Assembly (NCBI GenBank): GCA_003009755.1
Contig: PXUB01000017.1
Span: 1-64,000, forward strand
Direction of reading: 5' to 3'
Origin: Thermoplasmatales archaeon SW_10_69_26
GTDB taxonomy: Archaea; Thermoplasmatota; SW-10-69-26
DNA: 64,000 nucleotides
Shown piece after piece: positions 14,505 to 22,157 of this stretch (its first letter is position 1; every line of letters begins with the position of its first letter). The notes beneath the pieces are model-generated. The model ran no database searches and was not told the origin of the DNA. It saw only the letters and a list, made by a program, of their open reading frames with translations. Made by a program: the position numbers and the translations under genes.

Positions 14505-15278
14505 ATGGCGCAGGTGGTGGTTGCGGACTCGAACGCGCTCCGAGCCCTACTGCACGCTTTCCCGGGCGGCGAGGAAGTGTTTCATCCTCTCCAGCTTCGA
14601 GCAGATGACCAGGGACTAACGATCGCTGCGACGCAGAAGGCCGGCTCCTTCATGGCGAAACTCGAAATTGATGGAAGCGGCCTGGAACGTCAGCCCGCGA
14701 CGACAGCGGAGATGAGTCTCCTCCCTGACCAGTTCAAGTCGGTTCTTCAACCAACAAAATCCCAGTCCTTCTCTCAGGGCGACATCCGCGCCACCTTCGA
14801 TCTAGACGGAAACCGGATGCGGGTGAAGCTGGAAAGTGATGAACATCCGAGGGTGATTCGCCGGACAATCACGGCCGCCTCAGGCGGAAAACTACATTTC
14901 GAGAACCTTCCAGGCTTCGATGACGCTGCCCAAGCCCCAGATTTGGACCCGGTCATCCTGAACGAAGCAAGTGATCTCTTCCTTGCCACCGATGATGTGG
15001 ATCGGGTCCACCTCGAGATCTCTGATGGAAGGTTGGAGTTCGAATCACGGCCCCGCCCAGAAGATGCCGAATGCTTCGAGGAGGGATTGACGACAGAGGG
15101 CGAAGGTTCGACCTTGATCCTGCCGAAGTTCCTGGATGACGCCTCCGCGATCGCGAAGAGGAACACGGGCGTCGGAATCGCGTCCAGCGAACTTCGCGTT
15201 ATCGAGCGAGGACCGGTCCGTTTCCGATATAATCTGACGTGCGGTTCAGCGACCTACTGGGTGGGGCCTTCTCTGTAG
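14505..15278 (+). CDS. divergent PCNA-like sliding clamp
   Basis: A 257-residue protein with the layout of archaeal PCNA (about 245-250 residues): two similar halves of beta strands and amphipathic helices. N-terminal half: residues 8-60 (DSNALRALLHAFPGGEEVFH, then LRADDQGLTIAATQ) resemble the PCNA opening, and EMSLLPDQFKSVLQPTKSQ fits the strand and helix that start its second module. Second half: LDPVILNEASDLFLATDDVD, then VHLEISDGRLEFESR, and a C terminus FRYNLTCGSATYWVGPSL like the PCNA ending (an EY/F strand, then YLAP). PCNA rings tether polymerases, nucleases and ligases to DNA. Overall conservation looks weak, so this is probably an extra or element-borne clamp and not the cell's main one. 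Visibly less GC-rich than trkA. It converges with the next gene, overlapping by 25 bp. An ATG at 14494 is out of frame. Confidence 0.65.
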   Translation: MAQVVVADSNALRALLHAFPGGEEVFHPLQLRADDQGLTIAATQKAGSFMAKLEIDGSGLERQPATTAEMSLLPDQFKSVLQPTKSQSFSQGDIRATFDLDGNRMRVKLESDEHPRVIRRTITAASGGKLHFENLPGFDDAAQAPDLDPVILNEASDLFLATDDVDRVHLEISDGRLEFESRPRPEDAECFEEGLTTEGEGSTLILPKFLDDASAIAKRNTGVGIASSELRVIERGPVRFRYNLTCGSATYWVGPSL

Positions 15279-16234
15279 CCGAGAGAGGCTTGGAACGTTT
15301 CGGGGATCTCGATCCCTTCCCCGTTTTCCCCGTGGAGTAGCTCGGGGAGAACCAGTTCGTTGATCCCATCGGGAGGGCCATCCCTGAGGGGGAGCTTATC
15401 CTCGATCCAGGAGATGGATTCGAGCTTCCCGAACCCCTCCACCCGTTCTGACTGGTGTAGATCAACGCCATCCGGCATGACCAGAACCAATGGGTCGAAC
15501 TGAGGGTTCACCACGTATGCCGATGCAAATACGCTCCGCCACTCGAAATACGAGGTCACATCTTCTTCAATCGTTCCAGAAACAGGATACTTTCTCCCGA
15601 AATAGGAGGTCCGGTCTATTTTGCTCGGATGGGGGAAGCAGAACCGAGGGTGACCTTTGGGGCCTCCGACGGTCAAGACCTCGCCATGCTCTTCGAGCTC
15701 GTTCACGTAGTTGAGAAGGCCGGAGTAGCTAATCCGGAAGGAGGCGTCCTTACGGAGTCGGTTGTGGAGCTTCTGGATGTATAGTCCGGGATTCTGCTCC
15801 ACGAACTCGGTGACCTTGGCCATGCGGGCTGTCTTCGTTTCCTGCGTCTGGGACGATATGTACTCTTCAAGGCCAGCCTCGACTTCGGCCCATTCGTCGT
15901 CTCGGGCTACACCTGGCTGGACCCGCTCTTGGAGCAAGCTACGGAGATCTCTGGAGGTCCGGTCGATGAGTTCGAATACCGCCTCGATGTCTCCCTCATC
16001 GATGTTTCGGCCCCGTTCAGTCTCGTTCTGAAGATGTTGAACGAGGCCTATCTCATCCTCTGGCCGCTCGGCTTCCTCAACGAACCGCAGGATGGGTTCC
16101 CAGCGCTCTGGTCCGACTCTCTGATCCTGGAAGGCATGTTTGGCGATAGAGAGGAGATGATGGCGGACGTTGGGAGCGTCCTCGGCGAGTTCGCTCGCCT
16201 TCAGGGGGGCGCGAAGATCATGCACTCTCTTCAC
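15254..16234 (-). CDS. unknown protein with central winged-helix-like region
   Basis: A 326-residue protein of unknown family, starting at GTG. The first 140 residues are helical and charged. Residues about 150-215 look like a winged helix: TARMAKVTEFVEQNPGLYIQ, then KLHNRLRKDASFRISYSGLL, then NYVNELEEHGEVLTVGG, with a basic end GPKGHPRFCFPHPSK. The C-terminal 110 residues are mixed (FEWRSVFASAYVVNPQFDPL and VLVMPDGVDLHQ). Its start lies inside the end of the metallopeptidase gene (17-bp overlap), so they form one transcript. It may be a DNA-binding partner or regulator in the island. It is convergent with the clamp-like gene. Function is not assigned. Confidence 0.7.
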   Translation of the reverse strand: MKRVHDLRAPLKASELAEDAPNVRHHLLSIAKHAFQDQRVGPERWEPILRFVEEAERPEDEIGLVQHLQNETERGRNIDEGDIEAVFELIDRTSRDLRSLLQERVQPGVARDDEWAEVEAGLEEYISSQTQETKTARMAKVTEFVEQNPGLYIQKLHNRLRKDASFRISYSGLLNYVNELEEHGEVLTVGGPKGHPRFCFPHPSKIDRTSYFGRKYPVSGTIEEDVTSYFEWRSVFASAYVVNPQFDPLVLVMPDGVDLHQSERVEGFGKLESISWIEDKLPLRDGPPDGINELVLPELLHGENGEGIEIPETFQASLGYREGPTQ

Positions 16235-20900: not shown

Positions 20901-22157
20901 GGTATAATCAACGAAGACCTTCTGTCCGCCTTCGCCATTCTCTCGCGTCGTCAAGAGTTCGATGACTCGTGCGAGATGAGCATCCCCGATCTTGTGCTCT
21001 ACGAGGAAACGGACCTCTCGACTATCAGCCGGAGATGGATCCGTCCGAAACAGGCCTCCGTTGTATGGGGGGATGTGCAGGTCTTCCTCGGGAATACCCC
21101 GAGCTTGGCTGCCTTGATCGATGAGGGTGAAGAGCCTCTGGAGTCGATGCCAGAGGGTGTCTTCCCATTCATAGTAGCCAGGATCTGGTTTTTGGAGGTC
21201 TTCCGATATTTCCTGCTTCAGTTGGTTGAGGCTGTATTTCTCTCGGTAGATGCGGTTGCGGGTGTCCAGCAGGTCTCGACCTTCACTCTCTGCGTAGAGA
21301 ACGAAGATAAGACGGTAGAGGTAGATGAGGGAGCTATCGTGAATCAGCTCGAGGTCGTCTCTGTCGAGATCGTTCTCAGGATAGGAGAGGAACCCGCGAG
21401 CGAGGAGCTTGATTGCTTCATAGACGTTTTCTTGTAGATCCTCGCCAAGTTCTCTGGCAAAGACTGTGCTCTTATGGTAGACTCGGTCCAGGAAGCTGTT
21501 GCCCGTGGAATCCTCTACGAATGCCGCCTTTCTGAAGAAGAGGTAGAAGTACTTGAACGCCTCAGGGTCTCCTGCTTCGAGAAGAGTTGGTAGATTAACC
21601 TCGTAGAACGAGTCCAGCCGGTGACTGGTCTTGTCGTGGTAGAGCCTCCATTTCCTGCCGTTTGTGAGTATGCCCCAACTCGCTGAGGTTTCTTGGAGAT
21701 AGACGTGTATTTGGTGACCCGGATTCTCGAAATCTCGGCGGTGTTCTCCTTCAGTGTCCAGGGGTCGTCCCCATCGTTTCGCGTCTCCGACGGCAATGGC
21801 ATTGCGGTAGAAGTCGCCGCCCTGATCTCGGCGTTCATGGGCGTCATCTAGTGCTTCTTGACTTTCGAAGAAGGCATAGTCCGGGCGGCGTCGACCTCGA
21901 TAGACGCTTTCTTCTATTTCGAAGGAGAAACCGAGCAAATCGAGAACCGGATTAACGAACCGTTTCCGGAGCTGCAGCTCATTGAAGTTCTCAAGTCGGT
22001 CTTCACTGTCTCTGTACTCTTGAAGTAAATCGTGGAATGCGTCTTCGACATCCTCCTCTGGGACAGCGGACCACGCGTCTGACTCTGGGAGAGTGTCATC
22101 GAGGAAGTGATTCGAGAACAGTTCGCTGTTCTTCCAAGCTGTAAGGGCAGTCTGCAT
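17841..22157 (-). CDS. type IIG restriction-modification enzyme (Eco57I-like)
   Basis: A 1438-residue enzyme that carries both methylase and nuclease. N-terminal part: RRPDYAFF, then [15 protein letters not shown] near residues 120-135, a PD-(D/E)xK nuclease core. Middle: [14 protein letters not shown], then the SAM-binding motif [11 protein letters not shown] near 536, [20 protein letters not shown], and the catalytic [11 protein letters not shown] near 787, which marks N6-adenine methylation. C-terminal part: a target-recognition region and a family-typical ending [20 protein letters not shown]. ATG at 22157 is chosen; the upstream in-frame extension to 22301 would contain the probable TATA box. 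A GGAGG on the minus strand (22204-22208) stands 7 nt before an in-frame ATT, a possible rare start. GC is lower than in the neighbours, which points to transfer. It defends against foreign DNA. Confidence 0.92.
   Translation of the reverse strand: [1438 protein letters not shown]

What the first reader, a model, noticed from the sequence alone, without database searches (positions are those of the whole stretch)
14505..22157. Accessory island: clamp-like protein, winged-helix protein, metallopeptidase and type IIG enzyme
Seen: four genes that look distinctly less GC-rich than the flanking DNA, between trkA and the desaturase gene, with decayed or unknown genes at 14041-14370 and 17457-17945. 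Known: type IIG enzymes are defence genes and defence genes cluster. Inference: the clamp-like, winged-helix and metallopeptidase genes may be one unnamed defence or regulatory module beside the enzyme.
Basis: partly seen in the sequence, partly recalled or inferred. Interest (0 to 1): 0.75.

Follow-up and report, generated by a model that had tools for sequence, protein, structure and literature searches.

The report
Clamp, regulator and protease gene cassette
A low-GC island in a high-GC archaeon of the phylum Thermoplasmatota holds two unrelated insertions: an ordinary haloarchaeal-type restriction enzyme, and a rare, undescribed three-gene cassette (a diverged DNA sliding clamp, a DNA-binding protein and a zinc protease) that recurs in the same layout in an archaeon of another class, probably as cargo of mobile DNA.

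Summary
In detail: 14.5-22.2 kb is low in GC (0.55-0.58 against 0.67-0.69 in flanking genes), with GC3 of 0.65-0.68 against about 0.9. The island is not one four-gene module.

(1) 14505-17129 is a real three-gene cassette: A, a strongly diverged PCNA-type sliding clamp (+); B, a winged-helix protein (-); C, a HEXXH...E metallopeptidase (-). The same three genes, in the same order and orientation and with overlapping ends, lie in Thermoplasmatales archaeon Yes46-08, a member of another class. They are only 21-26% identical and sit near Orc1/Cdc6 and tyrosine-recombinase genes. A B homologue without C lies in a low-GC, transposase-rich segment of a third genome. The cassette is rare (2 complete, 1 partial in about 390 genomes); I found no description of it.

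(2) 17841-22157 is a motif-complete type IIG enzyme, 48-50% identical to haloarchaeal plasmid enzymes whose neighbours differ.

A truncated tyrosine recombinase separates the two parts.

Best mechanism, inferred only: a mobile-element switch in which protease C, coupled to clamp A on DNA, relieves DNA-bound B (logic of ImmA/ImmR and IrrE/DdrO). Defence is not supported. Structure models were too poor to place C in a peptidase family.

The parts
14505..15278 (+). Gene A: strongly diverged PCNA-type sliding clamp, 257 aa
   Evidence: Profile retrieves housekeeping PCNAs; hhalign with 13 PCNAs 95.4%, E 1.8e-8; five of six PDB profile hits are archaeal sliding clamps; Foldseek top 50 are PCNA entries, from a low-confidence model
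15254..16234 (-). Gene B: predicted winged-helix DNA-binding protein with a conserved C-terminal domain of no known family, 326 aa; convergent with A, 3' ends overlap by 25 bp
   Evidence: 27% identity over 249 columns to the G025 copy, E 9e-29; invariant GGPxG wing; only sub-threshold winged-helix hits
16218..17129 (-). Gene C: HEXXH...E metallopeptidase, 303 aa, overlaps the start of B by 17 bp
   Evidence: H146-E147-V-A-H150 and E171, D175 invariant in both copies; no family profile matches
17457..17840 (+). Relic: N-terminal part of a tyrosine recombinase, host-like GC3 of 0.91, lies between the cassette and the type IIG gene
   Evidence: Homologues in own genome on C19 (E 2.8e-9; Pfam Phage_integrase just below cut-off) and C2; catalytic half not found beside it; GC3
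17841..22157 (-). Gene D: complete type IIG restriction-modification enzyme; separate acquisition, not part of the cassette
   Evidence: Eco57I domain, PADLOC type IIG models, motifs PD..DAK, DPAMGSG, NPPY and 49.8% identity end to end to a Halococcus plasmid protein
14041..14370 (+). High-GC ORF remnant with an in-frame stop at 14155; resident decayed gene left of the island
   Evidence: Sequence, GC3 0.95, no homologue in 6 related genomes

Best explanation
Shown: A-B-C is a conserved, mobile three-gene cassette of a diverged sliding clamp (A), a winged-helix protein (B) and a HEXXH metallopeptidase (C); the type IIG gene D is a separate insertion. Inferred: the cassette is a control device of an integrated element. 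B would bind DNA as a repressor. C, co-transcribed with B, would cleave or remove B (or other DNA-bound proteins). The dedicated clamp A, loaded by host RFC where DNA is nicked or replicating, would give the signal or tether that tells C when and where to act. The logic would be that of ImmA/ImmR or IrrE/DdrO with a clamp as the DNA-state sensor.
For: The triad keeps order, orientation and overlapping gene ends across two classes at 21-26% identity. A is PCNA-related. C keeps HEVAH...E. B and C overlap head to tail on one strand in both genomes. Mobile setting: Orc1/Cdc6 and a recombinase near the G025 copy, a recombinase relic beside the window copy, transposases around the partial G079 copy, and low GC in the window and G079. 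The host keeps its own canonical PCNA, so A is not the housekeeping clamp. Precedent: a HEXXH peptidase paired with an HTH repressor on mobile elements (PMC2701414) and ssDNA-activated PprI/IrrE cleaving DdrO (PMC10904395).
Against: C matches no M78 (ImmA/IrrE) or other peptidase profile, and B is winged-helix, not Xre. The winged-helix call itself rests on pattern and sub-threshold hits. No A-B, A-C or B-C contact is shown; no convincing clamp-binding (PIP) motif was found (one weak match in C only). G079 carries B without C. Structure models failed.
Confidence: 0.35

Rival explanations
1. Plasmid-type replication or maintenance block: A is a private processivity clamp for the element's replication, B an initiator or copy-number DNA-binding protein, and C a peptidase with a separate role for the element.
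For: Orc1/Cdc6-type ATPase next to the G025 copy. Private PCNAs are known in haloarchaeal tailed viruses (PMC3950731), and this genome has another extra clamp on C22.
Against: No polymerase, primase or helicase gene is fixed to the cassette; the window copy has no initiator gene nearby; the fixed partner is a peptidase.
Confidence: 0.27
2. SPRTN-like repair: the zincin C, guided by clamp A and DNA-binding B, digests proteins stuck or crosslinked on DNA.
For: SPRTN is a HEXXH protease with a PCNA-binding PIP box (PMC9240642); here clamp and HEXXH protease are genetically linked.
Against: No SprT or WLM profile match to C; only one weak PIP-like match (QGFLKPLL, residue 235 of window C, none in G025 C); the rare mobile distribution does not look like a repair function.
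Confidence: 0.13
3. Hitchhiking: three unrelated accessory genes of one element family that stay together by descent, with no joint function.
For: Only two complete copies; G079 lacks C and has another arrangement.
Against: Order, orientation and overlaps are kept at 21-26% identity while every other neighbour differs; all three genes are intact in both genomes.
Confidence: 0.15
4. One reading: A, B, C and the type IIG enzyme D form one anti-viral defence island.
For: Adjacency and similar low GC in this window; D belongs to a class of known defence enzymes.
Against: D not found in the G025 genome; plasmid relatives of D have other neighbours; host-like recombinase relic between C and D; no PADLOC match for A, B or C.
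Confidence: 0.06

Closest known systems
PCNA, archaeal/eukaryotic DNA sliding clamp (Pfam PF00705/PF02747)
   Same: Length about 257 aa, two-domain clamp pattern, full-length profile alignment up to the last strand
   Different: About 15-23% identity to PCNAs, below Pfam thresholds, own long-branched clade with the G025 copy; tied to B and C rather than to replication genes
ImmA/ImmR and IrrE(PprI)/DdrO protease-repressor pairs (COG2856/M78 with Xre HTH)
   Same: HEXXH metallopeptidase gene next to a DNA-binding protein gene on mobile DNA (PMC2701414, PMC10904395)
   Different: C matches no M78 profile, B is a winged helix rather than Xre, and a clamp gene is part of the set
SPRTN/Wss1 DNA-protein crosslink proteases
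   Same: HEXXH protease associated with a PCNA-type clamp (PMC9240642)
   Different: No SprT or WLM profile match; association here is genetic linkage only; no convincing PIP box
Haloarchaeal type IIG restriction-modification enzymes (TaqI-like specificity domain)
   Same: Gene D: full-length 48-50% identity and all core motifs
   Different: Two of three plasmid relatives read are followed by helicase and TBP genes, one by an MFS gene; D has none of these

Membership tests
PCNA-type sliding clamp (A) | Sequence-profile homology over both clamp domains | tested here: met
   hhalign 95.4%, E 1.8e-8 over 202 columns; five archaeal clamps among six PDB profile hits, E 0.02-0.08; PCNAs retrieved across the phylum
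PCNA-type sliding clamp (A) | Clamp fold | tested here: inconclusive
   AlphaFold2 model pLDDT 34.6 with PCNA-like order of elements; Foldseek top 50 PCNA but TM about 0.2
PCNA-type sliding clamp (A) | Trimeric ring loaded by RFC | not testable with these tools
   Needs biochemistry
ImmA/IrrE (M78, COG2856) peptidase (C) | HEXXH with downstream E ligand | tested here: met
   HEVAH 146-150, E171 invariant in both copies; this signature is shared by many zincins
ImmA/IrrE (M78, COG2856) peptidase (C) | Match to the family profile | tested here: not met
   No Pfam or NCBIfam match for either copy
SPRTN/Wss1 protease (C) | SprT-like or WLM domain profile | tested here: not met
   No Pfam match, whole protein or catalytic part
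Type IIG restriction-modification enzyme (D) | PD-(D/E)XK nuclease, N6-adenine methylase motifs and specificity domain in one chain | tested here: met
   PDYA at 92, DAKR at 125, DPAMGSG at 535, NPPY at 788; 49.8% identity end to end to a Halococcus enzyme
DISARM (D as DrmMI) | DrmMI with drmA, drmB and drmC neighbours | tested here: not met
   DrmMI is the best PADLOC model for D (4e-106), but the neighbours are A-C, a desaturase, an HxlR regulator and Trk genes
Known anti-phage defence system (A-B-C) | Match to a defence-gene model | tested here: not met
   No PADLOC match for A, B or C

The most novel reading that the evidence does not exclude
A-B-C is an undescribed archaeal mobile-element system in which a dedicated sliding clamp directs or licenses a metalloprotease on DNA: a clamp-gated proteolytic switch or roadblock remover.
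Probability: 0.25. Interest if true: 0.82.

Novelty: new variant of a known kind. Interest (0 to 1): 0.5.

Why it matters
I found no description, in the papers searched, of a private sliding clamp fixed beside a DNA-binding protein and a HEXXH protease. If the three act together, it would be a prokaryotic case of clamp-coupled proteolysis, an arrangement known from eukaryotic SPRTN. It would also show a way for archaeal mobile elements to sense DNA state. The work also corrects a plausible but wrong 'defence island' reading by separating the restriction enzyme from the cassette.

Tried and rejected
Single-protein C search in 84,980 species genomes found nothing; the B alignment found only the G025 contig. 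Five viral-contig scans found nothing; neither did plasmid and phage tblastn for single cassette proteins. G253 as a B homologue: rejected, it is the end of a 1715-aa PKD-domain protein with a stop inside the match. G180 C hits: rejected, short N-terminal matches to 701-aa frames at E 0.002-0.008. G110/G374 B hits: rejected, partial at E 0.004-0.009. The 249-aa neighbour of B in G079 as a clamp: looks clamp-like by eye, but profile comparison is not significant (E 0.04-0.36), so not claimed. Element ends: no direct repeats flanking the island. Catalytic half of the recombinase next to D's start: not found. Structures of A and C: low confidence, so C's fold search was discarded.

Full report
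OBSERVATION. The GC break is real. Genes A (14505-15278 +), B (15254-16234 -), C (16218-17129 -) and D (17841-22157 -) have GC 0.55-0.58 and GC3 0.65-0.68. The flanking TrkH, TrkA, desaturase and HxlR-type genes have GC 0.67-0.69 and GC3 0.89-0.93. The lowest-GC 7.65 kb stretch of the window begins at 14578. The island is interrupted: 17457-17840 has GC3 0.91, like the resident DNA. It is the N-terminal part of a tyrosine recombinase whose relatives lie on contigs C19 and C2 of the same genome. The 14041-14370 tract is a high-GC ORF with an in-frame stop and no detectable relative in six related genomes. Two low-GC segments flank a resident relic, which fits two insertions better than one. That last step is inference.

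GENE A IS A CLAMP. Single-sequence scans miss it. Four tests agree. First, a profile made only from A and its G025 homologue retrieves housekeeping PCNAs: 30 of 390 genomes had a match at E <= 0.01, and 13 of the matches translated carry the PCNA ending LLAPR; a few matches (L024, L026) are not PCNA or could not be read as such. Second, profile-profile comparison with those 13 PCNAs gives 95.4% and E 1.8e-8, running from domain 1 to the last strand. Third, five of six PDB profile hits are archaeal sliding clamps, each weak (E 0.02-0.08). Fourth, the 50 best Foldseek hits are PCNA entries or complexes; the model has pLDDT 34.6 and TM about 0.2, so this is supportive only. The genome also has a canonical PCNA (C1, 56% to a class relative) and a second extra clamp on C22. 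A and G025 A form their own clade (support 0.997) with very long branches.

THE THREE-GENE CASSETTE. C found a distant match in genome G025. The contig there (15,415 bp; record JASEEW010000020.1, Thermoplasmatales archaeon Yes46-08) has A(+), B(-), C(-) in the same order, with A/B 3' overlaps of 17 bp (25 bp in the window) and B/C overlaps of 4 bp (17 bp in the window). Identities are about 24% (A), 26% (B) and 21% (C); pairwise BLAST E is 7e-13 for A and 9e-29 for B. G025 belongs to another class (its class has three held genomes). Its neighbours are an Orc1/Cdc6-type ATPase, a tyrosine recombinase and a TPR-Ras protein. No type IIG relative was found in that genome at E <= 1e-20. In G079 a B homologue (hhalign 96.9% over 156 columns) lies in a segment of GC 0.25-0.32 (surroundings mostly 0.34-0.46) with a DDE transposase inside and IS200-like genes on both sides, without C (the second IS200-like gene by its sequence likeness to the first). 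Its 249-aa neighbour may be a clamp but fails the profile test. In about 390 genomes of the phylum only these were credible.

GENES B AND C. B has a predicted winged helix with an invariant GGPxG wing and a conserved C-terminal domain with no family. The winged-helix assignment rests on pattern and sub-threshold hits. C has HEVAH at 146-150 with E171 and D175 invariant in both copies; a second HEIAH in the window copy is not conserved. No peptidase family profile was reached, and the structure model was too poor to use.

GENE D. D is a complete type IIG enzyme: PD...DAK nuclease motif, DPAMGSG, NPPY, with Eco57I and MmeI-type domains. It is 49.8% identical from end to end to a Halococcus dombrowskii plasmid protein. 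In the three plasmid loci read, the next genes are a helicase and a TBP gene in two and an MFS gene in one; tblastn of B and C found no match in the plasmid collection. D is therefore a separate, haloarchaeal-type acquisition.

MECHANISM. Shown: conserved linkage, clamp homology, intact catalytic motif and mobile context. Inferred: that C acts on B or on DNA-bound proteins, and that A supplies the DNA signal or tether. The nearest working precedents are PprI/IrrE-DdrO, where ssDNA activates a metallopeptidase that cleaves a repressor (PMC10904395), ImmA-ImmR on ICEBs1 (discussed in PMC2701414), and SPRTN, a HEXXH protease with a PCNA-binding PIP box (PMC9240642). None can be claimed as the family, because the profile tests were not met. 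A private clamp for replication, as in haloarchaeal tailed viruses (PMC3950731), is almost as likely. Defence is possible but has no evidence beyond adjacency.

VERDICT.

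Noticed in passing
L051:1417-2199 (own genome, contig C22, about 56.1-56.9 kb): A second extra PCNA-like clamp (32% to a class PCNA, weak PCNA_C match) downstream of a 459-aa protein of no clear family; the genome thus has at least three clamp genes, this one perhaps in a provirus or plasmid remnant.
   Followed up: partly
L005:849-3159 (own genome, contig C2): A tyrosine-recombinase gene (apparently split in two frames) of the relic's family lies next to an N4/N6 DNA methyltransferase gene.
   Followed up: no
L045:8001-15809 and L046:8004-15807 (haloarchaeal plasmids): Type IIG gene, helicase-related gene and TATA-box-binding-protein gene form a recurrent set in two different haloarchaeal plasmids, with a short ORF just upstream; may be a defence unit of its own.
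   Followed up: no
L011:6267-16779 (G079): A segment of GC 0.25-0.32 with a DDE transposase, bounded by two very similar IS200-like genes, carries the B homologue; looks like a mobile segment.
   Followed up: partly
window 7001-8500 and 45501-51000: Two milder GC dips (0.62-0.65) outside the island, not examined.
   Followed up: no
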